This document shows, piece by piece, positions 13,011 through 59,476 of a DNA stretch of 64,000 nucleotides. The DNA lies in assembly GCA_019454045.1 (NCBI GenBank), contig SKCR01025346.1:211267-275266 (forward strand). Reading direction: 5' to 3'. The translations under genes were made by a program, and so were the position numbers. This stretch comes from Zanthoxylum bungeanum (lineage: Eukaryota > Streptophyta > Magnoliopsida > Sapindales > Rutaceae). The notes under the pieces were generated by a model. It searched no databases. It was not told the DNA's origin and was given only the letters and a program-made list of their open reading frames with translations. Position 1 is the stretch's first letter; each line of letters opens with the position of its first letter.

Positions 13011-14114
13011 AATAGCTCTTTTGTGCTCGAGTAGCACTCTCAGCAACTTATCTTTCTGCACCCATGTTAGCGACGAAGAAATAATCACAGATAAATCAGA
13101 AGAGTTTTCTAAGTATGCATACCTGAGATGGTTCAGAAGCGGCTTTAGTTCCAGCTATGGTGGTTCTTCAATCGAGGGGTTGATTTGCTCCTTTTTCGGT
13201 AGTTCCAAGCTTTCCACATGTGGTGTCGATCTGAAGCGAGAGGCTCCATTAAGATAGTTGATACATTCCATAATCTCATCATCTAATTCTCTGGCAGTCA
13301 TGTTGGTGATGCATGCTTCAAGTTTGTCAGTGGAAAGTTGCATTACATATGTGTTCTAGATGATACTATCTATTACATCAAGTCTGAAACATTCCTCCTC
13401 ATTTTCATCATTTGGGAATTTCATGTTACTTCTTGGTCATGCACCCTCATGGTTAGTTCACATTTTTTGTATATCAATGATGGTTCGACCTGTAGCCAAG
13501 AATGGTCTCCCGAGGATGATGGGTACGTCTTTGTCTTCCTCAATGTCAGAGAAAATGAAATCTGCTGGGAAAATAAATTTGTCGACTTTGACTAGCACAT
13601 CTTCGACTACACCTCTCGGAAATGTGAGTGATCTATCAGCAAGTTGCAGAGTGACTGGGGTGGGCTTTGCTTCTCCAAGCTGTAGTTTCCTGTAAATAGA
13701 CAAGGGCATCAAGTTAATATTAGCACCTAAATCACACAACGCCTTAATGAAGTAATGTTCTCCTATGGAGAAAGGGATGGTGAAACTACCAGGATCTTTC
13801 AAATTTTGGGGAAGCTTCCTCTGAATGATGGTGGTGCATTCTTCTATCAATGCTACAGTCTCATAATCTCTCGATCTTTGCTTTCGTGACAGAATATATT
13901 TCATGAATTTGACATAACTGGGGCATATGCTCCAATGCTTCTGCAAATGGAATGTTGATAAGCAGCTTTTTGAAGATTTCCAGGAATCGAGCAAATTGTT
14001 TGTCCAGTTTGTGTTTCTGGAGATGCTGTGGAAAATGTGGAGGTGGAGTAAATCTTTCTCGATCATTTTCTTTTGCCTCTTTTTCCTCCATCTGTGGATC
14101 TGCTTCGTTGCTTT
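13011..14114 (-). pseudogene. gag-pro: Athila-type gag C-terminus, protease and linker, frameshifted
   Basis: Reading leftwards from 14114 there is a gag C-terminal segment (FTPPPHFPQHLQKHKLDKQF). A frame change follows, then a retropepsin-like domain with LCDLGANINLMPLSIYRKLQ (the D-L-G form of the active site) and IPIILGRPFLATGRTIID-type strands, ending near 13458. The protease-RT linker (ELDDEIMECINYL, then SIEEPP) is at 13343-13155, with further stops beyond. The frame changes twice. The right end is joined directly to an LTR at 14115 with no PBS, leader or gag N-terminus. Confidence 0.8.
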
Positions 14115-15878
14115 TGATCGGTGAAATCACACACGTAATGCAAGCGCACGTATCACTCAAGTAGTATAAAAATATTGATCCCACGATGACTTAATTTCTA
14201 CTGTTTTTATTAATTATTGATACCAAATGTTTACAGGTCTCTAATTGAGGTGAGAATGGAATGATTGTCGATTGGTTGGTTGAATGTGTATTTGCTAAAT
14301 AAATAAAATATAAAATAAAACAAAGGAAATTAATAATAAAGAAAATAAACATCTAGGGCTGTGATTCCACACAATATTATTCTAATGATGAATTGATTCT
14401 CTTATATATGTGTAATAAATTAGTTTCTTAACCTGGAACACGAAGATATGCAAAAGCCTCTTCTGATGGTCAGATGCAAACATCCATAGTAACCCAAGTA
14501 ACTATATTCCTATGTTAACCAAGTTACTCTGAATTCATTAACATTAAGTTCCAATTGTGGCTACCCACGTCCGACAGGTATATGTCTATCCTGAAAGAAA
14601 ATATCCCATAAAGTGAAATATACCATAAGACGAGATTGTGAGCTATTGAATCTAAGGTTGAAACATAAAATCCCTTCGTCAAGTTCATTTTAAGTTACCA
14701 CATCAATCTTATTGGTGATCAGTCAACAAGAAGCATTAAGCTTAAGGTTCAATAAATAAGCCTAAAGCATTATACATAATATAATTAAATCAATTGTTAA
14801 ACTTATAAATATTGTGCTTCATCACTTCCCTAGATTAAAAATAAAATATTGGGGTTATGGGATCCACCTTTACTATTTCAAATCTAGAAATATCCCTTAT
14901 TATAATATATAAATTTGCATTATATTACCAACCGACCATATAAGCGATATCTTGATTAAGTAATGTGATAATTAATTCCAATCGACCATGAAGGCGGCAT
15001 CCAATTAAGTCAAGTTAAAATTAATTTAATTAAGTCCAACTGACCATAAAGGCGATATCCAATTAAGTCAAGTTTTAAGATAATTTATATATTATAATTT
15101 AAGGGAGATTAATCTAAATTATCATAATAAAAGTTTCAGCATTCCCTCAGCGGAAATTTAACTACAAAACATAAAAGAAAGATAAACTAATTAAACTATT
15201 ATTACTACTAGAAATAAAAATACATAATTAAAAGTACAAAAATTAAACACACAAGATACAGTCCTTAGATCCTTATTAAGAACCTTAAGGAAAGTATTAT
15301 TACTACTATTAAAAATAAAAATATATATTAATATAAATATATACAAACAAGATATAATCCTCAGTTCCTTATTAAAAAAGCTAAGGAAAGTATGAATTTG
15401 GAAAATGAAATCAGCTTCAATTTATAGGCAAAATTCGACCTTGCGTATCGCGACGCAGAAGGCTTGCGCGTCGCGATGCGCATTGATGCTTGACACGTGT
15501 ACGCGACTCGCTGCGATGGTGACACATGTACGCGTTTCGTCGGTGCGTCGTGATGCAGAAATTATACGCTTCACGACACGTGAACAATAATGACATAGGG
15601 ATGACGTCAGCGATGATGCGTATCGACAGGCTGTATAATTGAGGCACGTCGCGATGCAGAGAAGTGCGCGCGTCGCGACGCGTGAACAATGAATTTTCAT
15701 TTTTGCCCTTTTTGTCTGTTTTTCATTGTTTTAGCCCCAAGTTGATTCCATTGAGTCCCAAAACTTTATTTATCTGCAAAACAAACAAAAACACATCAAA
15801 ACGTTCATAAAACCCGAGAAACTAAACAAAATATTAGGTCAAGTGAGTGGTAAATAGTGATATATTTTCCGCTCATCA
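14115..15878 (-). repeat. Athila-family LTR (L1)
   Basis: On the plus strand it starts TGATCGGTGAAATCAC and ends TTCCGCTCATCA. It shares the blocks ACAAGCGCACGTATC-like, CAAGTAGTATAAA, CCTGGAACAC and the three-fold ACCGACCATA...GGCGGTATCC units (about 14930-15060) with the LTRs at 16930, 28456 and 30632. The minus-strand TATA box CCTATAAA lies at about 15421-15428. A purine tract (TTTGGGGGTG on the minus strand, just right of 15878) marks it as a 3' LTR of DNA to its right. Its left edge nevertheless abuts gag-protease DNA directly. Between about 15430 and 15700 it differs completely from the other three LTRs, so it is from another subfamily. Confidence 0.8.
15430..15700. repeat. CpG-rich block inside LTR L1
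   Basis: Short repeats of the type GCGTCGCGACGC or TATCGCGACGC recur here, for example near 15440, 15463, 15545, 15645 and 15668. They are separated by ACACGTG-type sequence, within otherwise AT-rich DNA. The three other Athila LTRs have CCACCAAATCC-type repeats at this place. Short open frames on both strands here are compositional. Confidence 0.75.
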
Positions 15879-16310
15879 CACCCCCAAACCTAACATTTTG
15901 CTAGTCCTCGAGCAAAACAAACAAAATGAAATGAAATAAATAATTAAAACTAAATTAAACTAAGCCACTTTCGTAGGGATCACGATTGCATTTAGCGTAT
16001 GCAACAAGCTTTTAAACCCTTAGGTGTCCCTAGTGGACAAGTTGTAGTCTCGTAAGGGCTTACAGCGACGATACCCACAAACGTCAATTACATGCACATG
16101 CAATCACACACAAAAACAAAAGAAAGAAATAAAAGAAAAGAAAATAATAGCTATATATACAATTTCCTCAGATAATGTCTAGCAACAAAGTTAAAGGAAC
16201 CTTCAAAATGCATACTACAACTAAAATCATTTCCTTACAAAGTATCTAAATCAGACTCTAAGTGTGTGTGTGAATAATTCTGCAAATAACTTCAATTCTA
16301 AGTTATTAAC
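15879..16310 (-). other. Purine tract and 3' non-coding end of an Athila-type element
   Basis: The minus strand reads GTTTGGGGGTG directly before the L1 LTR start TGATGAGCGG, the standard purine tract position. The next several hundred bases (GCTCGAGGACTAGC, then CCACTAGGGACACC) are homologous to 19087-19300 beside LTR L2. No gene is present. Confidence 0.75.
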
Positions 16311-16929
16311 TAGGTGAGTTTGTATCAATTCTCAATTTTGTTGTTCTGGTTGGGGGAAAGTATTTTGCAAGGAATTTGGTGGCAAGAGTGTTCCAAGTTG
16401 TGATGGAACCTGCTAGTTGTGAATGGAGCCAAGCCTTAGCTATGTCTTTCAAAGAATATGGGAACATACACAGACACGTTGCTTCTTCTGCCGCTCGGTT
16501 GTAATTGAATGTGCCACAAACTTCCAAGAAATTGCTAATGTGGGCATTAGGATCTTCAGTTGCACTTCCCCCAAACTGGACTGATTGTTGTATCATTTGA
16601 ATACATGTTTTGATGTCACACATATCTGCTGGTAAGGGTGGAAGTACAATGCATGATATGAAGCCGTCAACCACCGGAATTGTTCTATCTCGAATAGGAA
16701 TTGGTGGTGCAACTTCCAAAGGTTCAGGTTCTTGATTGTTCATGTTGATCAGTGCTTCTTGATCTTCTCGTCTTTCCTTTCTCAACTGTTTAATAGTTCT
16801 TTCAATTTATGGGTCAAGCAAACTGATTTCAAAGCTTCTACTTCTTTTCATGTAGTGTCTGGGAACCTGAAACACAAGAAAATAAAAATAATAAGTAAGA
16901 ACAAATTAAACACAAGTAAAGTATCTAAC
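16306..16929 (-). pseudogene. gag: Athila gag N-terminal fragment
   Basis: It is homologous to the gag at 27689-28324. The recognisable start (MKRSRSFE-like) is followed by a stop near 16808. The frame is then open from 16785 to 16306, with capsid features such as FGGSATEDPNAHISNFLEVC, FPYSLKDIAKAWL and TWNTLATKFLAKYFP. At about 16310-16325 the gag frame breaks and runs straight into 3' non-coding sequence, so all of PR, RT and IN is deleted. The leader of this gag continues at 30580, because the element 16930-30574 has inserted at CTAAC (16925-16929). Confidence 0.8.
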
Positions 16930-19086
16930 TGACCGGTGCGTAATCACACGCGTATAAAGCAAGCGCACGTATCGTTCAAGTAGTATAAAAAGTATCGACC
17001 CCACGAGGACTTAATACCTAATATATTAATTTTATGAGGTCAAATGATTACTAGTATCTAACAGGTTGATTGATTGATTTGAAATGGTGATGATTTTGAA
17101 TTTATAAATAAGTAAACAAAATTGCGTGAAATTAGGTTTAAGAAAATTCAATATTAGGAAACTATATAGGGTTGTGAATCTTCCAATATCATTTTAAAGA
17201 TGAAGTGGTTATTTCATTTTTGTGTAATATATCGATTTACTAACCTGGAACACTAAATTATGCGAAAGCCTCTGTCGAAGGTCAGACGCAAATACCCAGT
17301 ATAACCCAATTGAACCATATGTCTATGTCAACCAAATTACCTGGATTCATTAAGTTTAAGTTCCAATTATGGCTACCCCCGCCCGACAGGTATATGTCTA
17401 TCCTGTAAGGAAATCTATTAAAGGGTTATCTATCCTCAAGGAAGATCGTGGGCTATAAAGTCTAAGGCTGAAACCTAAAATTCATTTGTCAAGTTTATTT
17501 TAGATTTACCAGATCAATCTTATTAGTAGCCAATTAACAAGACGCATTAAGCTTAAGACTTAATAAGTACACCTTTAAATTACCCAAACTATAAAAATAA
17601 CCCCTTATAAACCGGTGATATTAGAATTCATCACAACCCCAGATAACTAACTTGGTTACGACACATAGCTAGGGCTAGTAAAAACTTAAATAAAATAAAA
17701 GACATAAAGTAAATGCTGAAAGTAAATTGCTGAAAAGTAAATGAGGGAAAGTAAATGCTGAAATTAAATACTGAAAATTAAATGCTGAAAAGTAAATGCT
17801 GAAAGTAAATTACTGAAAAGTAAATGCTGAAAGTAAATTGTTGAAAGTAAATTGCTGAAAAGTAAATGCTGAAAGTAAATTGCTGAAAAATAAATAAAGT
17901 AAAAGTACAATAAAAGAAAATGCTGAGGTAAAATGATCCACTTTTATTATTTTTATTTTAGATATCTCCATTAATATAATATATTAACTTTGCATGATAA
18001 TTACCAACCAGCCATATAGGCGGTATCCAGATTAAGTCAAATTAATAATTAATTACCAACCGACCAATCAGGCGGTATCCAGTTTAGTCATGTTAAAACC
18101 AATTTAAATAATTACCAACCGACCAATATGGCGGTATCCTCGTTAAGTCAGGTTTTAACTAGTTTATATATTATAATTAATGGAGATTAATCTAAATATT
18201 AGTAATAAAAGTTTTACCTTTTACCCCAGCAAAGGGGAGTTACCGCCTCATTACTGAAAAGTAAAAACTGAAAATTAAAGAAAGAAAAGTATTGTGCGTA
18301 AAAGTAAATTGCGGAAAGTAAAAACTGAAATGTAAAGAAAAGAAAGTGCGAAAGCGGAAATTAATTACTGAAAGCTGTAAATAAACAAACAAGATACAAT
18401 CTTCTTAGTATTCTTAAGGAATTCCTTAGAAGAAAGTATGAATTTACAAATGAAATGGCTTGGTATTTATAGGCAAAATTTTGCCTCCATCAAATCATCC
18501 ACCAAATCCATTATTAATTGCTCCACTAATTACTCAACTAATTGCTCCACCAAATCCATTATTAATTGCTCCACTAATTGCTTATCATGTTTGGTGGTGA
18601 TTTGATAATTTTTATTATTTATTTATTAATTTATTTTTTGCTTTGAAAATGATTTTAATAATTACACACAACACACTTTTGGATGGTTCATCAATTTCGG
18701 GCATGAAATCTTCCGAATTCGAAATTATTTTGTCTCTCAAAGTTGTCTATCTTTGAGTCTTCTTTAATCTGAAACCATGAATCAGCTCAATCCGATATCT
18801 GAGTAAAAAGTTATGCCCAAAATACGACAGATGCGCAAAATTAGAATTTCCAAAACTGCACTTCGTTAAAACGCCCTTTCAAGTTTCCAATCTCCAAAAT
18901 TAATATGTCAAGTCCAATTTTTACCCTTATTTGACCCACATTTCGTCCTAAATGATTTCATTGTTTCCCAATATTATTTTATCTGCAAAATAAACTAAAA
19001 CACATCAAAACGTTCATCAAACCTGAGAAACTAAACAAAATATTAAGTAAAATTGGCGGTAAATATTGATATATTTTCGCTCATCA
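16930..19086 (-). repeat. 3' LTR (L2) of the LOG-carrying element
   Basis: It starts TGACCGGTGCG and ends TTCGCTCATCA on the plus strand. It contains a minisatellite of 14-16-bp units (AGTAAATTGCTGAAA-like, about 17705-17900), three ACCAACCGACCA...GGCGGTATCC units (about 18003-18140), CCACCAAATCC repeats (about 18495-18590) and a minus-strand TATA box, CCTATAAATACC, at 18462-18473. Confidence 0.9.
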
Positions 19087-20417
19087 CACCCCCAACCTAA
19101 TATTTTGCTAGTCCTCGAGCAAAACAACAAAATAAAATACAAGAAACAATTAAAATTAAACTAAGCCACTTTCGTAGGGATCACGGTTGCATTTAGCGTA
19201 TGCAACAAGCCTTTAAACCCCTAGGTGTCCCTAGTGGACGAGTTGAAGTCTCGTGAGGGCTTACAACAACGATATCCACAAACGTTTTACAAAAGTAAAA
19301 AGATAGTAAAACTAATGAACACAAAAGCAAAAAGACAAGAGAAAAGAGAATAAAGAAGTTAGTGACTAATCAGGTGAAACTTCTACTTCAAGTTACTAGT
19401 TGTTTTCTTTCTTTCTAAATTACTGAATAAGTAAATTCTCCAATTATATTTACCATTCTCCATATGCACAGCCGATAAAATATTAATCAACTCATTTTTG
19501 CCCACAACAGTCACAAGTGCAGTTGATAAGAGAGTAATATTTTTGTCCTAAAGTTTTATCAGAATTCACACCTTTTTGCAGCAATGGAATATTTTTTCTG
19601 ATTTTTCTCTTTGATTTTTGATTTTTTTTTTAGTTACATACAATATCTTCCATCTATGTAGCGAGTGTTGGGTCGGTGGCTCCCAAACCAGTTGGCTTAG
19701 GGCACCAGGTGTTAAGACACCCATACAGACTTAATTACTCAGACTTCAGATATATATATATATATATATTTGCAACATCCTTGATCCATATAGCGAGCTT
19801 TGGGCCAGTGACTCCCAAACCAGTTGGCTTTAGGGCACTAGGTGTTAAAACACCCCTACAGACTTAATAACTCGGATCTCAGACGGTTTGTTGTTTTTTT
19901 TACTCCATCACTTTTTGAGATGTTTCCTCCAATTAAACTAGAGCACTGAATATTACAAACTTTTCAATTATAGCTCATGCCCGTATATTACCATGCATGT
20001 TGATAATTCCTGCCAACTGAGCATATGAAGATCCATTTTAGTCAATTTTATGGAGAATTTACAAATTAAATAATTCAAAAGGAAATAAACAAAATTTAAC
20101 TTGTTCCGAAAATAGGTTTGAAATACGTCTCAGGAGTGGAAACTCCTTACTCAGCTATCTCTTACCAATTTCACCTTTTAGTCAAAATAAAAACACAAAA
20201 ATGCAAAATATTTTTGTAATTTTTGAAAAAAATTCAATATTTTTGTATTTTTCAAAAAAAAATTGGACTAAAAATAAAAATAACACACAACTAAAAACAA
20301 GATACTGATCAACTAATTCTCCCCCAAACCTAAATGAGACATTGTCCCCAATGTCTTAAACAGTAGAAAAAGAGCTTGGAAGATAATACCTGGTTAGCTG
20401 AAATTCTACACAAAAAG
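19087..20417 (-). other. Purine tract and 3' non-coding region of the LOG-carrying element
   Basis: The first bases give the minus-strand purine tract TTGGGGGTG before the LTR start. The rest holds no gene. It includes a pair of diverged direct repeats of about 130 bp (about 19655-19750 and 19785-19880, both with CTCCCAAACCAGTTGGCTT) separated by a (TA)n run at 19750-19770, and A/T-rich runs near 20210-20290. Confidence 0.75.
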
Positions 20418-21071
20418 TTAAATGTTAAGATCCAGATTAATCCGACACCTCTTACCACGATCGTCCTCGGACCAATTTATCTTTGAAAGGATATGGTCAA
20501 TTTGTGGTTCATAGGCTAAGATTTTTTCAATTAGATCCGGAGAAGTTCTGGCAGTGAAGAAGAGTTCTTTTGAAGGTTTTGACACGAATCCATTTCTCCG
20601 GGCATCATCAAGAAACACACAAAGAAAATAATAAAATCCTTCAACGTTGTACCGTTCAAGCGATTTCTGGTGTATGTTCAAGTTTGCCCAAGATAATAGT
20701 GTAAAAATTTCCTCCAATGTACCCAAGCCACCTGGCAAAGCAATAAAAGAATCAGCACTTTTAATCATTTCTACAAGTCGTTCAGACATACCTGGCACGA
20801 TTAGTTCCTCTCCGTTTGATGGTCCAATAAGATTTTCCTCTGCCAATGGTTTTAGGATGATTCCCAATACGTGACTGCCTCCTTCCTGTACAGCCTTTGA
20901 AACGATCCTCATTAGTCCAAGATTGCCTCCGCCATATACTAAGTGCATATTCCTTGCAGCTAAGACTCGACCCAATTCCTGTGCTGCTTCTACGTATTGT
21001 GGCTTAACACCAACACTAGTACCGCAAAACACACAGATGTTTTCAACTCGTCTTCTTGAAGTGGCTTCCAT
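20418..21071 (-). CDS. LOG: LOG-family cytokinin riboside 5'-monophosphate phosphoribohydrolase (copy 1, intact)
   Basis: This 217-codon frame starts at the ATG ending at 21071. LOG enzymes cleave the ribose phosphate from cytokinin nucleotides to release the active base. The family features are ICVFCGTS (residues 12-19), VYGGGNLGLM (45-54), the M-x-x-R segment (M95 to R98) and the hallmark PGGLGTLEE (113-121), followed by LSWANL. Length is normal for the family. Plant LOG genes usually have several introns, but this frame has none, which suggests capture from a spliced RNA. Odd points are Arg at residue 55, where I would expect Gly, Leu after R98, where Lys is usual, and a C-terminal LDLNI. 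It lies in sense orientation between the pol remnant and the purine tract of an Athila-type element. Expression and activity are unknown. Confidence 0.9.
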   Translation of the reverse strand: MEATSRRRVENICVFCGTSVGVKPQYVEAAQELGRVLAARNMHLVYGGGNLGLMRIVSKAVQEGGSHVLGIILKPLAEENLIGPSNGEELIVPGMSERLVEMIKSADSFIALPGGLGTLEEIFTLLSWANLNIHQKSLERYNVEGFYYFLCVFLDDARRNGFVSKPSKELFFTARTSPDLIEKILAYEPQIDHILSKINWSEDDRGKRCRINLDLNI

Positions 21072-21111
21072 GTTTTACTCTGGATGTCTTCAAAAGTGCA
21101 ATGATGAGTTG

Positions 21112-21134
21112 AATTTATAACACCTAAAAAAGGG
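21112..21134 (-). promoter_or_regulatory. Candidate splice acceptor and TATA-like site before LOG
   Basis: On the minus strand CCCTTTTTTAG ends about 52 bp before the LOG ATG, and TTATAAATT follows about 41 bp before it. The first resembles a 3' splice site that could give a spliced subgenomic RNA, and the second a weak TATA box. Neither is proven. The same bases occur before LOG copy 2 (around 24721-24743). Confidence 0.3.
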
Positions 21135-21348
21135 TGAGTAAAATAATAGCACTAGTACCTACCAAATGACAATTATTAGTTAACAGTAAAATAAATCGTG
21201 ATAGTCAAAAAGGTCTGGATCCTGTCGGAGAAAATAAAAGAAAACAACAAAACAAATTACAATTATTAGGAAAAGACAAAGAGATATAATATGTACAAGA
21301 AAAGTAGCGGCTTGATTGACGTCTATGCGTCAGGGACAAGCTTCCCAT

Positions 21349-21810
21349 CTAATTTTCTAATAATTGGCAAACAGGGTCTTTTTGAGTCAGATTCCCGAGA
21401 CTTAACTGTTGTCTTTCTCTTTGAAATTGTGCATATAACACACAAATTTCGTGATACACATATCCGCTGGGATGCGTCTCAAGAGTTTTAGATATATCAT
21501 CCAAAGACTCCTTACTCAAGCCATCCCTAATGAAATTAATCTTATCTTCGCGGTTATCAGACATCATTCCTAAAGAACGACAACGAGTATCACAAAACAT
21601 ACGAGCACATTTATAACAAACACACATTCTTTTTACTCTTCTCTTTTTAGCATAGGTGCTCCTTCCTAAACCAGGCAGATGTGAAATAAAGGGGTCAGAA
21701 GACTCACCTGCCAATCGGACCCGTGCTTCAATAATCCAATGAATGTCAGTAGGAATACATTTGATCATCAGTAACCTCATCCGTTCCAAGCGAGCTTTGT
21801 AGACTTTCAT
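21349..21810 (-). CDS. Unknown Cys-containing ORF next to LOG (copy 1)
   Basis: This 153-codon frame starts at the ATG ending at 21810, 277 bp upstream of LOG on the same strand. I do not recognise the family. Visible features are a basic N-terminus, a Lys/Arg-rich stretch (AKKRRVKRM) that could act as a nuclear signal, a Cys cluster CVCYKCARMFCDTRC (four Cys in CX2C...CX3C-like spacing plus one more), and a charged helical region with NREDKINFIRDGL and QFQRERQQLSL. No signal peptide or membrane segment is seen. Copy 2 keeps a different C-terminus (FIRKLDGKLVPDA) because a single base differs near 21360, so one copy is frameshifted at its end. It lies where some Athila elements have an env-like ORF, but it shows no envelope features. 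Confidence 0.5.
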   Translation of the reverse strand: MKVYKARLERMRLLMIKCIPTDIHWIIEARVRLAGESSDPFISHLPGLGRSTYAKKRRVKRMCVCYKCARMFCDTRCRSLGMMSDNREDKINFIRDGLSKESLDDISKTLETHPSGYVYHEICVLYAQFQRERQQLSLGNLTQKDPVCQLLEN

Positions 21811-22008
21811 CAGAGATTTTTGAGAGAGAGAAGGAAATTGCTTGTGAAGATTTGCGAGAACTTATTCCATCCTGAAATGAATTAACCTACGAAAATTAAA
21901 CACACAAAATGAAATCACACCAAATCACAATATATACACAAATTGCATGGGTTGCCTCCATGCGAGCGCTAAGTTTAACGTTGACAGCTAGACGTGACTT
22001 CTCGAACG

Positions 22009-22913
22009 TTAGGCTGGATCTGAAAGTGTGACACTTTCTTTTTGTCGCTCAAATGATTCTCCCCAGTAGTGCTTGACACGCTTGTTTTTAACCTTGAATG
22101 TTTTGTTGGAGTCAGGATCATGTATCTCAACGGCTCTGTCTGGTAAAACCTTGGTGATCACAAATGGACCTGACCACCGTGATTTTGGCTTCCATTGGAA
22201 GAATTTCATTATTGATTTATTTAACAGTACCTTCTTCCCTGGTTCCAGTTGTATGTGCACTAACTTCTCATCTTGTCTCTTCTTGGCCTTTTCTTTGTAC
22301 AATTTGGCATCCTCAAAAGGCTGATTGTGAAATTCCTCCAATTCGTTGAGCTGGTGGAACTTTTTCTCTTCTATTGCTTGTAGTGCAAGAATTGGCTTTT
22401 TCAGTGCAAAAGACGTTTTATCCTCAGGCTCTACATGCAATTGACATGTTTTAAGTTTGTCAATAGAACTTTGCATTGCATTGGAGTTCTGAATGGTACT
22501 GTGTATCACATCAAGTCTGAAATATTCTTCATTCTTTTCATCATCTGGGAAATTCATGGCCTTGAAAACATTGAATGTTACTTCTTGGTCACGTACCCTC
22601 ATGGTTAGTTCTTCTTTCTGTACATCAATAATGGTTCGACCTGTAGCGAAGAACGGTCTCCCAATGATGATTGGCACGTCTGCGTCTTCCTCCATATCAA
22701 GGATAATAAAATCTGCTGGGAAAATGAATTTATCAACCTTGACCAGCACATCTTCAACTACACCTCTCGGAAATACGAGCGTTCTATCAGCAAGTTGTAG
22801 AGAGACTGAAGTTGGCATTGTTTCTCTAATCTGCAATTTCCTGAAAATAGAAAAAGGCATCAAGTTAACACTCGCACCTAAATCACACAAAGCCTTACCA
22901 AACTCATGTTCTC
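22009..22913 (-). pseudogene. pro-int: Protease fused in frame to integrase C-terminus (copy 1)
   Basis: A frame of about 300 codons begins after an in-frame TGA near 22914 and has no natural start; it is part of a polyprotein. Its first part is a retropepsin-like domain with CDLGASVNLMPFSIFRKL (D-L-G active site) and DVPIIIGRPFFATGRTIID. A linker follows (VTFNVFKAMNFP). From about residue 185 it reads as an integrase C-terminus: HNQPFEDAKLYKEKAKKRQ, KVLLNKSIMKFF and SRWSGPFVITKVLPD (the GPY/F module), then FKVKNKRVKHYWG. RT, RNase H and the integrase zinc finger and DDE core are missing, yet the frame stays open across the join. The same structure is present in copy 2. Confidence 0.8.
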
Positions 22914-23051
22914 ATATGGTGCAAGGAACAGTGAAACTGCCAGGATCTTTCAATTTTGGAGGAAGTTTCCTTTGAATGATAGCGCTGCATTCTTCTGATA
23001 ATGCTACTGTTTTGTAATCTCCCAATCTCCGCTTTCGTGAAAGAATTTCTT

Positions 23052-23954
23052 TCATGAATTTGGCATAGCTGGGCATTGTTCCAACGCTTCTACAAATGGA
23101 ATATTGATATGTAGCTTTTTGAACACCTCCAGGAAACGAGCAAACTGCTTGTCCAGTTTGTTTTTCTGAAGACGCTGAGGAAAAGGTGGAGGTGGAGTGA
23201 TCTGTTCTTTTTCCTTTTCTTCTTTTTCCTCCATCCGTTGCTTTGTTTCTTTTGGAACTTCCTCAGCAGTTGTTTTGGCTCCAACATCTTTGTTGCTTTC
23301 AGTACCACTTTTTAATATGATGGCATGACATTGCTCCTTCCCCATTTTCCTCGGATTTGGTTCAGTGTTGCTAGGAAGGTTACCTGGCGGTCTGTAACTC
23401 TGAGCATTGGCCAGTTGTCCAATTTGATTCTCCAGTGCTTTAATAGAAGCTGATTGACTTTGAATTAATGCTACTTGGGATTGAAACATAGCATCATATC
23501 TTGCTGCTTGAGAGTCGTGTTTTGCTTCTATCTTTTTCAAGTGGGTCAACACTTCTGTTATTCCTGATTCATTTGCCTGCTCCTGGCCTTTGTTCTGTTG
23601 TTGGAATTCGAGTAGTGGGTTGTTCATTTGCCCTGAATTGTTGCTCAATGCGAAATTGTGGTGATTCATCCACCCTGGGTTGTAGGTGTTGGAATATGGA
23701 TTGTTCCCCTGTCTGTTGAAATTGTTGACATAATTCATAGTTTCTTTATGTTGATTGAAAGATTCTGACTCAGGTGCTCCTCCAAATGGTGAACTTGTGG
23801 ATCCACCAGTAACCTTCATGTTAAGAGTTTCCAGATTTTTGCAAATCACATCCAGCTTGGAATTCAGTGCTGTGTTGGCTCCAACTTTATAAATTCCTGG
23901 AATTCTTTGGATCATGCTCCTTTCTGTTGGCCATAAAGAATTATTGTTGGCCAT
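23052..23954 (-). pseudogene. gag: Athila gag middle and C-terminal region (copy 1)
   Basis: The open 300-codon frame starts at an internal Met (ANNNSLWPTERS). It contains the Asn-rich gag middle (NNFNRQGNNPYSNTYNPGW), a coiled-coil-like ALENQIGQLA, an acidic-basic EEKEEKEKEQ run and the TPPPPFPQRLQKNKLDKQFARF segment shared with other Athila gags. It lacks the N-terminal capsid part, which exists only beside copy 2. It loses frame at about 23060, where the sequence should continue towards the protease. A stop also separates this region from upstream gag. Confidence 0.75.
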
Positions 23955-24116
23955 TTCTTCAATTAAGTCTCAGGCCTGATCTTCTCATTTTGTCATCAAA
24001 GCTCTTCCAGCAGCAGCATCAATTGTGGTTCTCATTATTCCAGAAAGTCCATTGTAGAAGGTTTGGACTTGTAGCCACTTTGCGATCTCATGATGAGGAC
24101 ATTTCCGGAATAATGA

Positions 24117-24680
24117 GTTCATAGGCTAAGATTTTTTCAATTAGATCCGGAGAAGTTCTGGCAGTGAAGAAGAGTTCTTTTGAAGGTTTTGACACGAATC
24201 CATTTCTCCGGGCATCATCAAGAAACACACAAAGAAAATAATAAAATCCTTCAACGTTGTACCGTCCAAGCGATTTCTGGTATATGTTCAAGTTTGCCCA
24301 AGATAATAGTGTAAAAATTTCCTCCAATGTACCCAAGCCACCTGGCAAAGCAATAAAAGCATCAGCACTTTTAATCATTTCTACAAGTCGTTCAGACATA
24401 CCTGGCACGATTAGTTCCTCTCCGTTTGATGGTCCAATAAGATTTTCCTCTGCCAATGGTTTTAGGATGATTCCCAATACGTGACTGCCTCCTTCCTGTA
24501 CAGCCTTTGAAACGATCCTCATTAGTCCAAGATTGCCTCCGCCATATACTAAGTGCATATTCCTTGCAGCTAAGACTCGACCCAATTCTGTGCTGCTTCT
24601 ACGTATTGTGGCTTAACACCAACACTAGTACCGCAAAACACACAGATGTTTTCAACTCGTCTTCTTGAAGTGGCTTCCAT
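24117..24680 (-). pseudogene. LOG: LOG copy 2, truncated and frameshifted
   Basis: It is a duplicate of 20507-21071. The ATG ends at 24680. One C is missing near 24586 (AATTCTGTG against AATTCCTGTG in copy 1), which breaks the frame after about 31 codons. From 24585 the frame is open again and keeps VYGGGNLGLM and PGGLGTLEE. The last part is lost at the duplication junction: after AYE the residues change to LIIPEMSSS, replacing about 30 codons. It is unlikely to make an active enzyme. Confidence 0.9.
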
Positions 24681-24931
24681 GTTTTACTCTGGATGTCTTC
24701 AAAAGTGCAATGATGAGTTGAATTTATAACACCTAAAAAAGGGTGAGTAAAATAATAGCACTAGTACCTACCAAATGACAATTATTAGTTAACAGTAAAA
24801 TAAATCGTGATAGTCAAAAAGGTCTGGATCCTGTCGGAGAAAATAAAAGAAAACAACAAAACAAATTACAATTATTAGGAAAAGACAAAGAGATATAATA
24901 TGTACAAGAAAAGTAGCGGCTTGATTGACGT

Positions 24932-25420
24932 CTATGCGTCAGGGACAAGCTTCCCATCTAATTTTCTAATAAATTGGCAAACAGGGTCTTTTTGAGTCAG
25001 ATTCCCGAGACTTAACTGTTGTCTTTCTCTTTGAAATTGTGCATATAACACACAAATTTCGTGATACACATATCCGTTGGGATGCGTCTCAAGAGTTTTA
25101 GATATATCATCCAAAGACTCCTTACTCAAGCCATCCCTAATGAAATTAATCTTATCTTCGCGGTTATCAGACATCATTCCTAAAGAACGACAACGAGTAT
25201 CACAAAACATACGAGCACATTTATAACAAACACACATTCTTTTACTCTTCTCTTTTTAGCATAGGTGCTCTTCCTAAACCAGGCAGATGTGAAATAAAGG
25301 GGTCAGAAGAAGACTCACTGCCAATCGGACCCGTGCTTCAATAATCCAATGAATGTCAGTAGGAATACATTTGATCATCAGTAACCTCATCCGTTCCAAG
25401 CGAGCTTTGTAGACTTTCAT
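24932..25420 (-). pseudogene. Unknown Cys-containing ORF, copy 2 (frameshifted)
   Basis: It is a duplicate of 21349-21810. The start at 25420 is kept, but small indels at about 25243, 25270 and 25306-25316 disrupt the N-terminal half. The frame is open from a Met at 25237, contains the Cys cluster, and runs to a stop at 24932 with the C-terminus FIRKLDGKLVPDA that copy 1 lacks. This C-terminus may be the original one. Confidence 0.65.
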
Positions 25421-25618
25421 CAGAGATTTTTGAGAGAGAGAAGGAAATTGCTTGTGAAGATTTGCGAGAACTTATTCCATCCTGAAATGAATTAACCTAC
25501 GAAAATTAAACACACAAAATGAAATCACACCAAATCACAATATATACACAAATTGCATGGGTTGCCTCCATGCGAGCGCTAAGTTTAACGTTGACAGCTA
25601 GACGTGACTTCTCGAACG

Positions 25619-26523
25619 TTAGGCTGGATCTGAAAGTGTGACACTTTCTTTTTGTCGCTCAAATGATTCTCCCCAGTAGTGCTTGACACGCTTGTTTTTA
25701 ACCTTGAATGTTTTGTTGGAGTCAGGATCATGTATCTCAACGGCTCTGTCTGGTAAAACCTTGGTGATCACAAATGGACCTGACCACCGTGATTTTGGCT
25801 TCCATTGGAAGAATTTCATTATTGATTTATTTAACAGTACCTTCTTCCCTGGTTCCAGTTGTATGTGCACTAACTTCTCATCTTGTCTCTTCTTGGCCTT
25901 TTCTTTGTACAATTTGGCATCCTCAAAAGGCTGATTGTGAAATTCCTCCAATTCGTTGAGCTGGTGGAACTTTTTCTCTTCTATTGCTTGTAGTGCAAGA
26001 ATTGGCTTTTTCAGTGCAAAAGACGTTTTATCCTCAGGCTCTACATGCAATTGACATGTTTTAAGTTTGTCAATAGAACTTTGCATTGCATTGGAGTTCT
26101 GAATGGTACTGTGTATCACATCAAGTCTGAAATATTCTTCATTCTTTTCATCATCTGGGAAATTCATGGCCTTGAAAACATTGAATGTTACTTCTTGGTC
26201 ACGTACCCTCATGGTTAGTTCTTCTTTCTGTACATCAATAATGGTTCGACCTGTAGCGAAGAACGGTCTCCCAATGATGATTGGCACGTCTGTGTCTTCC
26301 TCCATATCAAGGATAATAAAATCTGCTGGGAAAATGAATTTATCAACCTTGACCAGCACATCTTCAACTACACCTCTCGGAAATACGAGCGTTCTATCAG
26401 CAAGTTGTAGAGAGACTGAAGTTGGCATTGTTTCTCTAATCTGCAATTTCCTGAAAATAGAAAAAGGCATCAAGTTAACACTCGCACCTAAATCACACAA
26501 AGCCTTACCAAACTCATGTTCTC
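25619..26523 (-). pseudogene. pro-int: Protease fused in frame to integrase C-terminus (copy 2)
   Basis: It is identical in structure to 22009-22913, including the in-frame TGA upstream and the missing RT to integrase-core section. I see one amino-acid difference (EEDTDVP here, EEDADVP in copy 1). Confidence 0.8.
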
Positions 26524-26660
26524 ATATGGTGCAAGGAACAGTGAAACTGCCAGGATCTTTCAATTTTGGAGGAAGTTTCCTTTGAATGATAGCGCTGCAT
26601 TCTTCTGATAATGCTACTGTTTTGTAATCTCCCAATCTCCGCTTTCGTGAAAGAATTCTT

Positions 26661-27557
26661 TCATGAATTTGGCATAGCTGGGCATTGTTCCAACGCTTCT
26701 ACAAATGGAATATTGATATGTAGCTTTTTGAACACCTCCAGGAAACGAGCAAACTGCTTGTCCAGTTTGTTTTTCTGAAGACGCTGAGGAAAAGGTGGAG
26801 GTGGAGTGATCTGTTCTTTTTCCTTTTCTTCTTTTTCCTCCATCCGTTGCTTTGTTTCTTTTGGAACTTCCTCAGCAGTTGTTTTGGCTCCAACATCTTT
26901 GTTGCTTTCAGTACCACTTTTTAATATGATGGCATGACATTGCTCCTTCCCCATTTTCCTCGGATTTGGTTCAGTGTTGCTAGGAAGGTTACCTGGCGGT
27001 CTGTAACTCTGAGCATTGGCCAGTTGTCCAATTTGATTCTCCAGTGCTTTAATAGAAGCTGATTGACTTTGAATTAATGCTACTTGGGATTGAAACATAG
27101 CATCATATCTTGCTGCTTGAGATCGGTTTGCTTCTATCTTTTCAAGGGGTCAACACTTCTGTTATTCCTGATTCATTTGCCTGCTCCTGGCCTTGTTCTG
27201 TTGTTGGAATTCGAGTAGTGGGTTGTTCATTTGCCCTGAATTGTTGCTCAATGCGAAATTGTGGTGATTCATCCACCCTGGGTTGTAGGTGTTGGAATAT
27301 GGATTGTTCCCCTGTCTGTTGAAATTGTTGACATAATTCATAGTTTCTTTATGTTGATTGAAAGATTCTGACTCAGGTGCTCCTCCAAATGGTGAACTTG
27401 TGGATCCACCAGTAAACTTCATGTTAAGAGTTTCCAGATTTTTGCAAATCACATCCAGCTTGGAATTCAGTGCTGTGTTGGCTCCAACTTTATAAATTCC
27501 TGGAATTCTTTGGATCATGCTCCTTTCTGTTGGCCATAAAGAATTATTGTTGGCCAT
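26661..27557 (-). pseudogene. gag: Athila gag middle and C-terminal region (copy 2, frameshifted)
   Basis: It corresponds to 23052-23954 but is split into two frames (27557-27162 and 27098-26661) by several small indels around 27115-27200. The second frame keeps the coiled-coil-like ALENQIGQLA and the TPPPPFPQRLQKNKLDKQF segment. Confidence 0.75.
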
Positions 27558-27688
27558 TTCTTCAATTAAGTCTCAGGCCTGATCTTCTCATTTTGCCATC
27601 AAAGCTCTTCCAGCAGCAGCATCAATTGTGGTTCTCATTATTCCAGAAAGTCCATTGTAGAAGAAAGTATGAATTTTGCCATCAAAGC

Positions 27689-28324
27689 TCATTGGACTTG
27701 TAGCCACTTTGCGATCTCATGATGAGGACATTTCCGGAGTAAATCTTTGAATTTTTCCCAAGCTTCGCAAAGGGATTCTGAATCTTGTTGCACGAAGGAT
27801 GTGATATTATTCCTCAATTTTGCAGTTCTGGCTGGTGGAAAGTACTTTGCAAGGAATTTGGTGGCTAGAGTGTTCCAAGTTGTGATGGAACCTTCTGGTA
27901 ACGAGTGTAGCCAAGCTTTAGCTATGTCTTTCATGGAATATGGAAAAACCTGCAGTCTCATTGCTTCTTCAGCTGCTCGGTTGTAATTGAAAGTACCACA
28001 AACTTCCAGGAAGTTGCTGATGTGGGCATTAGGATCTTTAGTTGCATTTCCCCCAAACTTTACTGACTGTTGAATCATCTGGATGCATGTTTTGATGTCA
28101 CCCGCATTTGCTGGTAAGGGAGGAAGTACAATAAAAGAAATGAGTCTGTCAACCACCAGAATGGTTCTGTCTCGAATGGGAATCGGTGGTGCAACGTTCA
28201 AAGGTTCAGGTTCCATGTTAATGATTGCTTCTTGGCCTTCTCTCCTTTCCCTTCTCAATTGTCTGATGGTTCTTTCAATTTCTGGGTCAAGCGGTAGGAG
28301 TTCAAAGCTTCTGGTTCGTCTCAT
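27689..28324 (-). pseudogene. gag: Athila gag N-terminal (capsid) region
   Basis: The likely start is the ATG ending at 28324 (MRRTRSFELLPLDPE). The frame is also open further upstream to 28450, but that part overlaps the PBS and leader and is not protein-like. Capsid features are FGGNATKDPNAHISNFLEVC, FPYSMKDIAKAWLHS, TWNTLATKFLAKYFP and CEAWEKFKDLLRKCPHHEIAKW. It ends at a stop near 27689, beside the altered duplication edge, so it is separated from the rest of gag. The leader bases just before the ATG (TTGTGTTTCAG) look like a splice acceptor. Confidence 0.8.
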
Positions 28325-28431
28325 GTAGTTTATGAGAACCTGAAACACAAGAAAATAAAAACAATAAGTCAAAAGAATTAGATACAAGTAACGGTATCTA
28401 ACCTTAAGATTAATAGTAAAAGATAAATAAG

Positions 28432-28449
28432 TCCTTGGCAACGACGCCA
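28432..28449 (-). other. Primer-binding site (tRNA-Asp type) of the LOG-carrying element
   Basis: The minus strand reads TGGCGTCGTTGCCAAGGA, six bases after the LTR end. It matches the complement of the plant tRNA-Asp 3' end (the usual Athila primer) except for three positions, all explicable by C-to-T or G-to-A change. Confidence 0.8.
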
Positions 28450-28455
28450 AAAACT

Positions 28456-30574
28456 TGACCGGTGCGTAATCACACGCGTATAACGCAAGCGCACGTATCG
28501 TTCAAGTAATATAAAAAATATCGATCCCACGAGGACTTAATACCTAATCTATTAATTTTATAAGGTCGAATGATTACTAGTATCTAACAGGTTGATTGAT
28601 TGATTTGAAATGATGATGATTTTGAATTTAATAACAAGTAAATAAAAATGTGCGAAATTAGGTTTAAGAAAATTTAATATTAGGAAACTATCTAGGGTTG
28701 TGAATCTTCCAATATTATTTTAAAGATGAAGTAGTTATTTCATTTTTGTGTAATATATCGGTTTACTAACCTGGAACACTAAATTATGTGAAAGCCTCTG
28801 TTGATGGTCAGACGCAAATACCCAGTATAACCCAATTGAACCATATGTCTATGTCAACCAAATTACCTGGATTCATTAAGTTTAAGTTCCAATTATGGCT
28901 ACCCCTGCCTGACAGGTATATGTCTATCCTATAAGGAAATCTATTAAAGGGTTATCTATCATCAAGGAAGATCGTGGGCTATTAAGTCTAAGGTTGAAAC
29001 CTAAAATTCCTTTGTCAAGTTTATTTTAGATTTACCAAATCAATCTTATTAGTGGCCAATTAACAAGACGCATTAAACTGAAGACTTAATAAGTAAACCT
29101 TTAAATTACCCAAACTATAAAATAACCCCTTATAAACCGGTGATATTAGAATTCATCACAACCCCAGATAACTAACTTAGTTGCGACACATAACTAGGGC
29201 TAGTAAAAACTTAAATAAAATAAAAGACATAAAGTAAATGCTGAAAAGTAAATTGCTGAAAAGTAAATGACGGAAAGTAAATGCTGAAATTAAATAATGA
29301 AAATTAAATGCTGAAAAGTAAATGCTGAAAAGTAAATTACTGAAAAGTAAATGCTGAAAAGTAAATTGCTGAAAAGTAAATGGTGAAAGTAATTGCTGAA
29401 AAGTAAATAAAGTAAAAGTACAATAAAAGAAAATGCTGAGGTAAAAGGATCCACTTTTATTATTTTTATTTTAGATATCTCCCTTAATATAATATATTAA
29501 CTTTGCATGATAATTACCAACCAGCCATATAGGCGGTATCCAGATTAAGTCAAATTAATAATTAATTACCAACCGACCAATCAGGCGGTATCCAGTTTAG
29601 TCACGTTAAAACCAATATAAAATTACAAACCGACCAATATGGCGGTATCCTCGTTAAGTCAAGTTTTAACTAGTTTATATATTATAATTAAGGGAGATTA
29701 ATCTAAATATTAGTAATAAAAATTTTACCTTTCACCCCAGCAAATGGGAGTTACCTTTTCATTACTGAAAAGTAAAAACTGAAAATTAAAGAAAGAAAAG
29801 TACTATGCGTAAAAGTAAATTGCGGAAAGTAAAAACTGAAAAGTAAAGAAAAGAAAGTGCGAAAGTGGAAATTAATTACTGAAAGCTGTAAATAAACAAA
29901 CAAGATACAATCTTCTTAGTATTCTTAAGGAATTCCTTAGAAGAAAGTATGAATTTACAAATGAAATGACTTGGTATTTATAGGCAAAATTTTGGCTCCA
30001 TCAAATCATCCACCAAATCCATTATTAATTGCTCCACTAGTTACTCCACCAAATCCATTATTAATTGCTCCACTAATTGCTTGTGTTGATTTGATAATTT
30101 TTATTATTTATTTATTAATTAATTTTTTGCTTTGAAAATGACTTTAATAATTACACACAACACACTTTTGGATGGTTCATCAATTTAGGGCATGAAATCT
30201 TCAGAATTAGAAATTATTTTATCTTTCAAAGTTGTAGACCTTTGAGTTTTATTTAATCTGGAACTTGAATCAGCTCAATCTGATATCAGAGTAAAAAGTT
30301 ATGCCCAAAATACGACAGATGCGCAAAATTGGAATTTCCAAAACTGCACTTCGTTAAAACGCCCTTTCAATTTTCCAATCTCCAAAATTAATATGTCAAG
30401 TCCATTTTTTGCCCTTATTTGACCCACATTTCTCCCTAAATGATTTCATGTGTCCCAATATTATTTTATCTACAAAATAAACTAAAACACATCAAAACAT
30501 TCATCAAACCCGAGAAACTAAACAAAATATTAAGTAAAATGGGCGGTAAATATTGATATATTTTCCGCTCATCA
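28456..30574 (-). repeat. 5' LTR (L3) of the LOG-carrying element
   Basis: It starts TGACCGGTGCG and ends TTCCGCTCATCA. The parts are in the same order as L2: minisatellite of AGTAAATGCTGAAA-like units (about 29230-29410), three GGCGGTATCC units (about 29525-29650), and the minus-strand TATA box CCTATAAATACC at 29972-29983. The right flank CTAAC equals the left flank of L2. Confidence 0.9.
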
Positions 30575-30631
30575 CTAACCTCAAAATTATGGTAAAAGAT
30601 AAATAAGTCCCCGACAATGGCGCTAAAAACT
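30575..30631 (-). other. Leader and PBS of the host Athila-type element
   Basis: This is the continuation of the leader cut at 16929. It contains a PBS (30608-30625, minus TAGCGCCATTGTCGGGGA) with three transitions relative to the tRNA-Asp type, placed just before the LTR at 30632. Confidence 0.75.
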
Positions 30632-33600: not shown

Positions 33601-34429
33601 AATAATTAATTTAAATTACTTATTTATATTAAGGGCATAAATCTAAATTATTATATTAAAAGTTTCACCCCAGAATCCAGCAAAAAGAGATTATCTACTC
33701 ATGATGTAATTAAAAACACACAAAAATTTATTAAATAAATAAAAAGAAAATACAAGAAAACTTAAATAAACATACAATACACTTTTTTTTAGGTTTTCAT
33801 GGAGAAATCCCTCAAATAAAGCATGAAAAATTTACAAAGTTTGGCTTGGTATTTATAGGCAAATATAAAAGTTTCCACCAATTTCTCCACCAAACACTCC
33901 ATCAAACACTCCACCAAACATGCCACCAAACATGTAACCATGTTTTGTGGAAGTTTGACAATTTCCATTTTTATTTTATTATTTTTTTTGAAAATGACTT
34001 TAATAATTATACATAACGCACTTTCAAATTTTTCATCAATTTCGGTCTTGAAAACTTCAGAATTCGAAATTCTTATGAACGTCAAAGTTGTAGATATTTG
34101 AGTTTTCTTTCATCTAAAACTTGAATCACCTCAATCCGATATCGGAATAAAACTTTATGGCCAAAATACGAAAATTACGCAAAGTTGAAATTTTCGAAAT
34201 TGTACTTCGTTAGAACGCCATTTCAATTTTCCAACTTCCAAAATCTAAATGTCAAGTCCAGTTTTACCATTATTTGTTCCATATTTCATCATGAATGATT
34301 CCATTGAGTCCCGATTTTATTTTATCTGTAAAATAAATAAAAACACATCAAAACGTTCATAAAACCGAGAAACTATACAAAATATTAAGTAAATGGGGCA
34401 GTAAATATTGATATATTTTACACTCATCA
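30632..34429 (-). repeat. 5' LTR (L4) of the host Athila-type element, interrupted
   Basis: It starts TGATCGGCTAAATAC and ends ACACTCATCA on the plus strand. It is homologous to L2 and L3 at 30632-31210 and 33190-34429, including GGCGGTA units (about 33475-33600), CCACCAAACA repeats (about 33875-33935) and the minus-strand TATA box CCTATAAATACC at 33848-33859. A 1974-bp insertion with its own TSD sits at 31211-33184. L4 differs from L1 in its last third, so L1 is not its true partner. The flanks GTTCC (right of L4) and GCTTT (left of L1) do not match. Confidence 0.85.
31211..33184. mobile_element. Solo LTR-like insertion with TSD TTAAG
   Basis: It starts TGTTAGTGTCC, ends TTGTCCAACA and is flanked by perfect TTAAG repeats (31206-31210 and 33185-33189) inside LTR L4. 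There is no internal coding region. Inside is a minisatellite of about 36-bp units built on TTAATCCCAGATTAATT (about 31965-32130). Size, ends and TSD fit a solo LTR of a large copia- or gypsy-type element. The orientation is undecided. Confidence 0.8.
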
Positions 34430-59473: not shown

Positions 59474-59476
59474 TAA

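What the first reader, a model, noticed from the sequence alone, without database searches (positions are those of the whole stretch)
20418..21071. Intact, intronless LOG (cytokinin-activating) frame carried inside an Athila-type retrotransposon
Sequence: a full-length 217-codon frame with PGGLGTLEE and the other LOG motifs lies in sense orientation between the pol remnant and the purine tract of an element with LTRs and a perfect TSD (CTAAC). Knowledge: LOG enzymes release active cytokinin, and plant LOG genes normally have several introns. Inference: the element captured a spliced LOG RNA. If other copies keep LOG, this is a retrotransposon family with a hormone-activating cargo, which could favour divisions of infected lineages or act as a source of LOG duplicates. 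The intact frame alone does not prove selection: at the LTR divergence seen, few stops would be expected by chance.
Basis: partly seen in the sequence, partly recalled or inferred. Interest (0 to 1): 0.9.

Follow-up and report, generated by a model that had tools for sequence, protein, structure and literature searches.

The report
Jumping gene carrying hormone-enzyme relative
A very common plant jumping gene carries, in many copies, an intact relative of the enzyme that activates the growth hormone cytokinin, with a changed substrate pocket and a new tail, and the pattern of mutations suggests the gene was kept for a purpose rather than picked up once by chance.

Summary
It is no one-off: in the unnamed 3.96-Gb plant genome 150 LOG matches were scored (from 69,791 first-look candidates); by my count 112 of 150 lack an in-frame stop. 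In 28 of the 30 best loci LOG follows a second accessory gene (two of them partial), a zinc-finger protein related to carlavirus/allexivirus cysteine-rich proteins. One compact 7.3-kb element without detected pol keeps LOG. Variants shared by three or more copies show N/S at 0.30 of neutral for LOG, private variants 0.80: purifying selection during spread. Element-type LOGs form one branch against canonical plant LOGs. They keep the catalytic Arg/Glu, have mostly lost three prenyl-pocket residues, and most have a basic plus LxLxL (EAR-like) tail, absent from 120 canonical LOGs. So "cytokinin-activating" is unproven; a nuclear, altered LOG-fold accessory protein fits better. LOG (YgdH) domains in Citrus and poplar gypsy elements are already in print (PMC9289625); pocket, tail, companion gene and LOG-only form were not met in my ten paper searches.

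The parts
16925..16929 (.). target-site duplication CTAAC (left)
16930..19086 (-). 3' LTR (2157 bp)
19087..19106 (-). stretch with the purine-rich tract next to the 3' LTR (sense AGGTTGGGGGTG)
   Evidence: read from sequence
19087..20417 (-). non-coding spacer between LOG and 3' LTR; 86-91% identical in the matches
20418..21071 (-). LOG-fold frame, 217 aa, with basic plus LxLxL-like tail (GKRCRINLDLNI in this copy)
21349..21810 (-). NABP: zinc-finger frame related to viral cysteine-rich proteins (PF05515 E 5.7e-7); broken in this copy (early stop before this frame, shift near the end)
22009..22890 (-). protease joined to integrase C-terminus; RT, RNase H and integrase core absent
   Evidence: comparison with C38886; no Pfam hit, domain names by motif are my reading
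23052..23954 (-). gag, 3' part (no Pfam hit; by position and comparison)
20507..24113 (-). tandem unit 2 (element sense), holds the intact LOG except its last codons, which lie just outside
24117..27742 (-). tandem unit 1 (element sense), 98.6% identical to unit 2
24094..24680 (-). second LOG copy, frame-shifted, matches LOG residues 1-196 only
24968..25420 (-). second NABP copy (82.8% as read through by tblastn)
27689..28450 (-). gag, 5' part (PF03732 E 7.4e-20)
28431..28449 (-). primer binding site (TGGCGTCGTTGCCAAGGAC); tRNA-Asp type by recall
   Evidence: read from sequence
28456..30574 (-). 5' LTR (2119 bp)
30575..30579 (.). target-site duplication CTAAC (right)

Best explanation
It is one decaying copy of a high-copy Athila-type LTR retrotransposon lineage in which a LOG gene, taken long ago from a plant, has become a standing accessory gene in the place where other Athila elements have an env-like frame. 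SHOWN: same position in many copies, different target sites, one branch of element-type LOGs, a selection signal, conserved catalytic residues, changed pocket, new conserved tail. INFERRED mechanism: the element makes a nuclear LOG-fold protein. The tail (basic run plus LxLxL) carries it to the nucleus and docks host TOPLESS-type co-repressors; the active site still splits a nucleoside monophosphate, perhaps no longer mainly a prenylated cytokinin nucleotide. Together with the zinc-finger NABP, a relative of viral silencing suppressors that can act as transcription factors, it would tune the host cell (hormone, cell division or silencing state) in favour of element expression and germ-line transmission. 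Shortened non-autonomous forms keep LOG even after losing pol or most of NABP. I hold 'retained accessory gene under selection' at about 0.85 and this particular nuclear mechanism at about 0.4.
For: Copy number and frames: (150 scored rows; 112 without in-frame stop by my count). Same architecture. An element with gag-PR-RT-RNaseH-INT-NABP-LOG-PPT-LTR: C38886 (integrase domains just under Pfam cut-offs, protease by DNA match only). Compact element without detected pol, TSD GAGAC: C23088. Selection: 49 of 50 fetched LOG loci (L005 dropped, same translation as L004): variants in >=3 copies N42 S61 (0.30 of neutral), private N109 S52 (0.80), Fisher p 2.3e-5; NABP, found in 39 of the 49: 0.40 against 1.10, p 1.5e-4. 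Transversions alone, >=3 copies: LOG 0.25, NABP 0.45. In 17 pol-deleted copies LOG variants shared by two or more give 0.24. One branch, SH-aLRT 97. Pocket and tail. Fold: AF2 pLDDT 85.5, pTM 0.82, tail 204-217 under 50; Foldseek best hits At LOG8 and LOG3, TM 0.93-0.95 by target.
Against: LOG copies were picked by protein similarity to the window's LOG, which lowers N in all classes (private LOG transversions 0.49). Classes differ: private A/T to G/C transitions are low in both genes (0.53 and 0.40), private C/G to T/A ones high (1.47 and 1.74). Shared variants may move between backbones by recombination, so selection in pol-less forms is not shown apart from selection in the undeleted ones: LOG identity between types equals that within types, and the compact type is no separate branch. 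One LOG stop (residue 64) is shared by 3 copies, and shared NABP variants include 2 stops. LxLxL comes and goes on the tree (6 changes) and 20 of 94 homologues lack it. An LxLxL sequence need not bind TOPLESS: ten tested LxLxL effectors of a downy mildew did not (PMC7446885, passages). The context of homologues outside this genome was not seen. No transcript, protein or enzyme data.
Confidence: 0.6

Rival explanations
1. Plain cytokinin activation: the element-borne LOG still turns cytokinin nucleotides into free cytokinin and pushes infected meristem cells to divide.
For: Catalytic Arg99 and Glu122 kept (48 of 49 copies each; 109 and 116 of 120 homologues); PGGxGT largely kept; Met96 and Trp129 of the prenyl pocket kept (48 of 49 each); fold as At LOG3/LOG8. 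A viral relative of the neighbouring NABP causes hyperplasia (PMC12172455, passages).
Against: His97, Lys100 and Glu125, named as adenine/prenyl contacts in PMC4979012 (passages) and unchanged in 120 of 120 canonical LOGs, are Ser, Leu (once Met) and Thr/Ile in the family.
Confidence: 0.27
2. Passenger: LOG was copied along by chance in a successful family and is only slowly decaying; apparent constraint is an artefact of how copies were chosen.
For: Copies were ranked by LOG protein score. 38 of 150 rows have in-frame stops by my count. Much of the variation among copies is private.
Against: The shared-versus-private contrast is also seen in NABP, which was not used to choose copies (0.40 against 1.10), and in transversions. 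Catalytic residues and tail recur across homologues down to about 45-50% identity. LOG is kept in a shortened element.
Confidence: 0.1
3. Domesticated host gene family: a LOG branch with the new tail is a normal host gene in several plants, and elements only picked it up later and repeatedly.
For: Populus and Xanthoceras homologues are annotated as proteins of those genomes. I could not search this genome for intron-bearing host LOGs (search machine unreachable).
Against: In this genome at least 27 of the 30 best loci sit in element sequence. PMC9289625 (passages) reports the YgdH domain inside LTR-element consensuses of Citrus and poplar.
Confidence: 0.1
4. The tail, not the enzyme, is what is selected: the LOG fold serves as a stable carrier for a TOPLESS-titrating or repressing LxLxL tail.
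For: The tail ends LDLN[LIF] in 47 of 49 copies and has LxLxL in 74 of 94 homologues of 205-260 aa against 0 of 120 canonical LOGs. A downy-mildew effector uses a C-terminal LxLxL tail on TOPLESS (PMC7446885, passages).
Against: Catalytic residues are kept too, which a mere carrier would not need. Some basal rows have the basic run but no LxLxL.
Confidence: 0.2

Closest known systems
YgdH (LOG-family) domain in Citrus and poplar Ty3/gypsy consensus elements (PMC9289625, passages read; it cites Steinbauerova et al. 2011, which I did not see)
   Same: LOG-family domain inside plant gypsy elements: consensuses of Citrus sinensis and C. clementina, and of P. trichocarpa without the filter.
   Different: In the passages I read, nothing on selection, pocket residues, tail, a neighbouring NABP, or pol-less LOG-only forms. 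Whether those elements are of the same lineage was not tested.
Athila lineage of plant Ty3/gypsy elements (PMC6317226, passages; PMC7264820, two of three parts read)
   Same: PR-RT-RNaseH-INT order, no additional archaeal-type RNase H found, extra frames between pol and 3' LTR, 5-bp target duplication.
   Different: No Athila ORF-1 domain found; the extra frames are NABP and LOG, not env-like.
Gypsy elements of Phalaenopsis with an AlkB m6A demethylase (PMC9289625, passages read)
   Same: A host-type enzyme gene fixed as an accessory frame in a plant gypsy lineage; that one was shown active in vitro.
   Different: Different enzyme and proposed target (RNA methylation).
Canonical plant LOG (Arabidopsis LOG3, LOG8)
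   Same: Fold, PGGxGTxxE, catalytic Arg and Glu.
   Different: Prenyl-pocket His/Lys/Glu and Tyr117 replaced; C-terminus replaced by a basic plus LxLxL tail; frame without introns.
Cysteine-rich (NABP) proteins of carlaviruses, allexiviruses and mandariviruses
   Same: Basic run followed by a C-x2-C zinc-finger region; Pfam PF05515/PF01623 hits.
   Different: Weak similarity; here encoded behind pol in a retrotransposon. Direction of transfer unknown.

Membership tests
LOG phosphoribohydrolase family | PGGxGTxxE motif and catalytic Arg/Glu | tested here: met
   residue numbering from PMC4979012 (passages)
LOG phosphoribohydrolase family | LOG fold | tested here: met
   (predicted model)
LOG phosphoribohydrolase family | prenyl/adenine pocket His97, Lys100, Glu125 (cytokinin-type) | tested here: not met
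   S 49 of 49; L 48 and M 1 of 49; T 32 and I 17 of 49
LOG phosphoribohydrolase family | release of free cytokinin from its nucleotide | not testable with these tools
   needs an enzyme assay
Athila (Ty3/gypsy, OTA) | domain order RT-RNaseH-INT without additional archaeal RNase H | tested here: met
   Pfam on 10 of the 23 stop-to-stop frames of the C38886 element: RVT_1, RT_RNaseH, Integrase_H2C2 and rve in this order (the last two just under the curated cut-offs); no RNase_H (PF00075) hit
Athila (Ty3/gypsy, OTA) | extra frame(s) between pol and 3' LTR | tested here: met
Athila (Ty3/gypsy, OTA) | Athila ORF-1 domain (in 16% of Athila elements by PMC6317226) | tested here: not met
   no PF03078 hit in the frames searched; optional feature
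Athila (Ty3/gypsy, OTA) | RT/RH/INT place in the reference tree | not tested
   no reference set of plant elements on hand; the label rests on domain set and a recalled protease motif
Viral NABP / cysteine-rich protein | Pfam PF05515 or PF01623 above curated cut-off | tested here: met
   window frame 21349-21810: PF05515 30.2 against 23 bits; the short piece 24932-25237 has no hit; 7 of 10 homologues pass one of the two cut-offs, 1 hits below both, 2 have no hit
Viral NABP / cysteine-rich protein | silencing suppression or transcription-factor activity | not testable with these tools
   known for viral members (PMC12172455, passages)
EAR-motif (TOPLESS-recruiting) proteins | LxLxL near a terminus plus nuclear localisation | tested here: inconclusive
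   sequence present; binding and location untested

The most novel reading that the evidence does not exclude
A lineage of plant retrotransposons has turned a captured hormone enzyme into a nuclear effector. A LOG-fold hydrolase with a rebuilt nucleotide pocket and a C-terminal nuclear/EAR tail works with a virus-type zinc-finger protein as a two-gene host-manipulation module, and shortened elements without pol persist as carriers of the LOG effector.
Probability: 0.3. Interest if true: 0.93.

Novelty: new variant of a known kind. Interest (0 to 1): 0.77.

Why it matters
Plant retrotransposons are usually seen as carrying only what they need to copy themselves; the roles of their extra frames are open. 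Here is a frame with a known enzyme fold, a selection signal, a rebuilt active site and a tail with a recognisable host target, so the old question of what accessory genes do for plant elements becomes testable with one protein, two assays and a two-hybrid. It also warns that genes annotated as LOG in poplar and Xanthoceras, and LOG gene counts in general, may include element-borne members with another function.

Tried and rejected
Rejected: plus-strand reading of the frame (15 stops); one-off capture; a virus as carrier in IMG/VR (no confirmed relative of LOG or NABP in viral contigs); a useful structure of NABP (mean pLDDT 62, pTM 0.32; not used for a fold search); a PDB relative of a NABP homologue by sequence (none up to E 1). 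The idea that the compact form has its own LOG branch was not borne out.

Not answered: an intron-bearing host LOG in the same genome (DNA pattern for PGGYGTLEE) and copies drawn through spacer or NABP, which would remove the selection bias. The genome search machine was unreachable. Searches were waiting scripts only.

Paper searches behind the novelty statement. Only open-licence papers are held; Steinbauerova 2011 was not seen.

Full report
1. The observation. ORF listing shows a 217-aa frame at 20418-21071 on the minus strand. Pfam calls it LOG family (PF03641 4.2e-29; PF18306 1.2e-16). The element reads on the same strand: 5' LTR 30574-28456, primer site 28449-28431, gag 28450-27689, then two tandem units of about 3.6 kb (27742-24117 and 24113-20507, 98.6% identical), each with gag end, protease joined to the integrase C-terminus, NABP and LOG; then a 1.3-kb spacer, purine tract and 3' LTR 19086-16930. 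CTAAC flanks both ends. LTR K2P distance is 0.044 over 2116 sites, about 1.7 million years at a recalled rate of 1.3e-8 per site and year. Only the LOG nearest the 3' LTR is whole; the other is frame-shifted and matches to residue 196 only. The window's NABP is itself broken.

2. Copies in the genome. A protein search scored 150 of 69,791 first-look candidates; the 150 rows match at 85% identity or more over residues 1-216 or 1-217, and by my count of the rows 112 show no in-frame stop and 38 do. These are the best matches to the window protein, not a random sample, and candidates are not copies. In the 30 fetched loci, NABP DNA was found upstream in 28 (in L008 and L014 only about 100-125 bases of it) and protease/integrase DNA in 27. 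Eighteen run through the same protease-integrase junction as the window, that is, a shared pol deletion; seven match only past the junction and at 74-79%, the undeleted type; five are unclear (my sorting). Wider stretches of six contigs show LTRs around the unit. C38886 holds gag, RT, RNase H, integrase zinc domain and core (the last two just under Pfam cut-offs), NABP, LOG, spacer, purine tract and LTR in order; protease is placed by DNA match only, and the polyprotein is in several frames.

3. Independent insertions. Eight elements were examined for target duplications. Both ends could be read in four, and the duplications differ: CTAAC (window), TCACC (C6946), ATATT (C47125) and GAGAC (C23088). 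In the other four (C38886, C31204, C9414, C19872) one or both ends were not found or not covered. C47125 sits inside another LOG copy, whose nucleotides 121-125 are the duplicated target.

4. A LOG-only form. Of 20 further loci that I picked by hand from ranks 32-150, 8 lacked a NABP match within 800 bases; seven of these share one upstream sequence among themselves (the eighth, L055, only its last 150 bases). A NABP protein query found nothing there at E 1e-3; by my reading a scrap of the NABP C-terminus remains, without a long frame. One of them, C23088, was fetched further: a 7.3-kb element, 91065-98364, TSD GAGAC, LTR match 95.5% over 1809 columns, one 305-codon stop-to-stop frame with weak similarity to gag (E 1.2e-5 over 49 aa; no Pfam family above cut-off) and LOG. 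No pol DNA was found in the stretches upstream of its LOG; downstream, spacer and LTR matches fill most of the stretch. Its spacer end and 3' LTR start are deleted. Nine such LOGs (L030, L049, L051, L053, L054, L055, L057, L059, L064) do not form a branch of their own (7 label changes, 8.4 expected by shuffling), so LOG seems to pass between backbones; they give N/S 0.21 of neutral for variants shared by two or more and 0.38 for private ones, with one stop in one copy.

5. Selection. For 49 of the 50 fetched LOG loci (L005 dropped, same translation as L004), variants were sorted by the number of copies that carry them. LOG, three or more copies: N42, S61, stop 1, 0.30 of the neutral ratio; two copies: N16, S26, stop 2, 0.26; private: N109, S52, stop 5, 0.80. 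NABP (39 of 49): N37 S38 stop 2, 0.40; N28 S13 stop 2, 0.87; N90 S27 stop 5, 1.10. Fisher, three or more against private: 2.3e-5 and 1.5e-4. An earlier run on 30 LOG and 28 NABP copies gave 0.27 against 0.69, and 0.43 against 1.07 (Fisher 0.0007 and 0.0011). Transversions alone: LOG 0.25 against 0.49, NABP 0.45 against 1.23; other classes vary. In 17 pol-deleted copies LOG gives 0.24 (shared by two or more) and 0.61 (private); in 7 undeleted ones 0.24 and 0.72. Private variants are mostly decay after insertion; shared ones passed through replication. The LOG sample is biased by its ranking; NABP was not used for ranking and shows the same contrast. Recombination between backbones limits what can be said of each form alone.

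6. What the protein is. Structure prediction gives a confident LOG fold (pLDDT 85.5) with a disordered tail from residue 204; Foldseek puts At LOG8 and LOG3 first. With CgLOG numbering (PMC4979012, passages): Arg99 and Glu122 (catalytic) are kept in 48 of 49 each, Thr119 and Glu121 in 49; His97 is Ser in 49 of 49, Lys100 is Leu in 48, Glu125 is Thr in 32 and Ile in 17. In the 120 listed homologues of the first search H97 is unchanged in 20, K100 in 11, E125 in 11; in 120 canonical LOGs all three are unchanged. On the tree, loss of K100 and of E125 each needs one change inside the element branch, loss of H97 needs three (those columns were not taken out of the tree). The canonical set is the 120 best of 7,998 hits to At LOG3, so other LOG groups are thinly covered (At LOG8 only).

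7. The tail. LxLxL within the last 14 residues: 0 of 120 canonical, 74 of 94 element-like proteins of 205-260 aa; basic cluster in the last 20: 1 of 120 and 90 of 94. In this family 47 of 49 end in LDLN[LIF]. On the tree LxLxL needs six changes and the basic run four, so neither is strictly fixed. Basic run plus LxLxL is what nuclear EAR repressors look like. In PMC7446885 (passages) a downy-mildew effector uses such a tail on TOPLESS, but ten other LxLxL effectors did not bind it.

8. Origin. The 62 element-like rows lie on one side of a branch with SH-aLRT 97 against 26 canonical rows, with a bacterial LOG as outgroup (quick search). Rows P0060 and P0097 (Xanthoceras) and P0031-P0033 (unnamed) lie at the base, with the canonical pocket and the basic run but no LxLxL; P0034 has pocket and LxLxL. 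This suggests basic tail first, then LxLxL, then pocket change. For homologues outside this genome the element context was not seen by me; for poplar and Citrus it rests on PMC9289625.

9. The companion. NABP has 307 homologues; named ones among the 120 listed are from Xanthoceras, Populus, Acer, Orobanche and Rhamnella. One Rhamnella protein joins an integrase-C-terminus-like stretch to NABP (P0236, my reading), which fits a place behind pol there too. NABP shares a basic run and C-x2-C zinc-finger region with the viral families. Viral members suppress silencing, and one (chrysanthemum virus B p12) acts as a transcription factor causing hyperplasia (PMC12172455, passages). That is the basis for the two-gene module idea; it is inference.

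10. Verdict. A real and common feature; not a fresh capture but an old accessory gene; not safely a cytokinin enzyme. LOG in gypsy elements is known; the remodelled enzyme, tail, partner and LOG-only elements make it a new variant.

Noticed in passing
13312-16929 and 30649-34428: Fragments of a related element (LTR 71-79%, gag 82%, protease 79%) on both sides: the LOG element is nested in a relative.
   Followed up: partly
41985-43096: G+C-rich tandem arrays of 44, 132 and 83-bp units with long open frames in three frames.
   Followed up: partly
57692-60829: Copia-type polyprotein pieces (VDSGATNH, integrase and RNase H-like motifs; my reading).
   Followed up: no
L033 1877-8021 and L040 1-8000: LTR-internal-LTR-internal chains (contigs C31204, C19872): the second internal part begins inside gag directly at the LTR edge, at different gag points; an odd junction for simple recombination.
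   Followed up: no
20507-24113 and 24117-27742: Tandem duplication only 1.4% diverged while the LTRs differ by 4.3%: it arose after insertion or is an assembly effect. Its two NABP copies match 82.8% by tblastn although long DNA stretches there are identical, which I put down to frame shifts.
   Followed up: partly
L011 and L016, LOG codon 64: The same stop at LOG residue 64 in 3 of 49 copies, these two among them: recurrent mutation or a dead sub-line that still spread.
   Followed up: no
P0228 C-terminus: A NABP homologue with an extra C-terminal stretch ending NLSLSL, again LxLxL-like.
   Followed up: no
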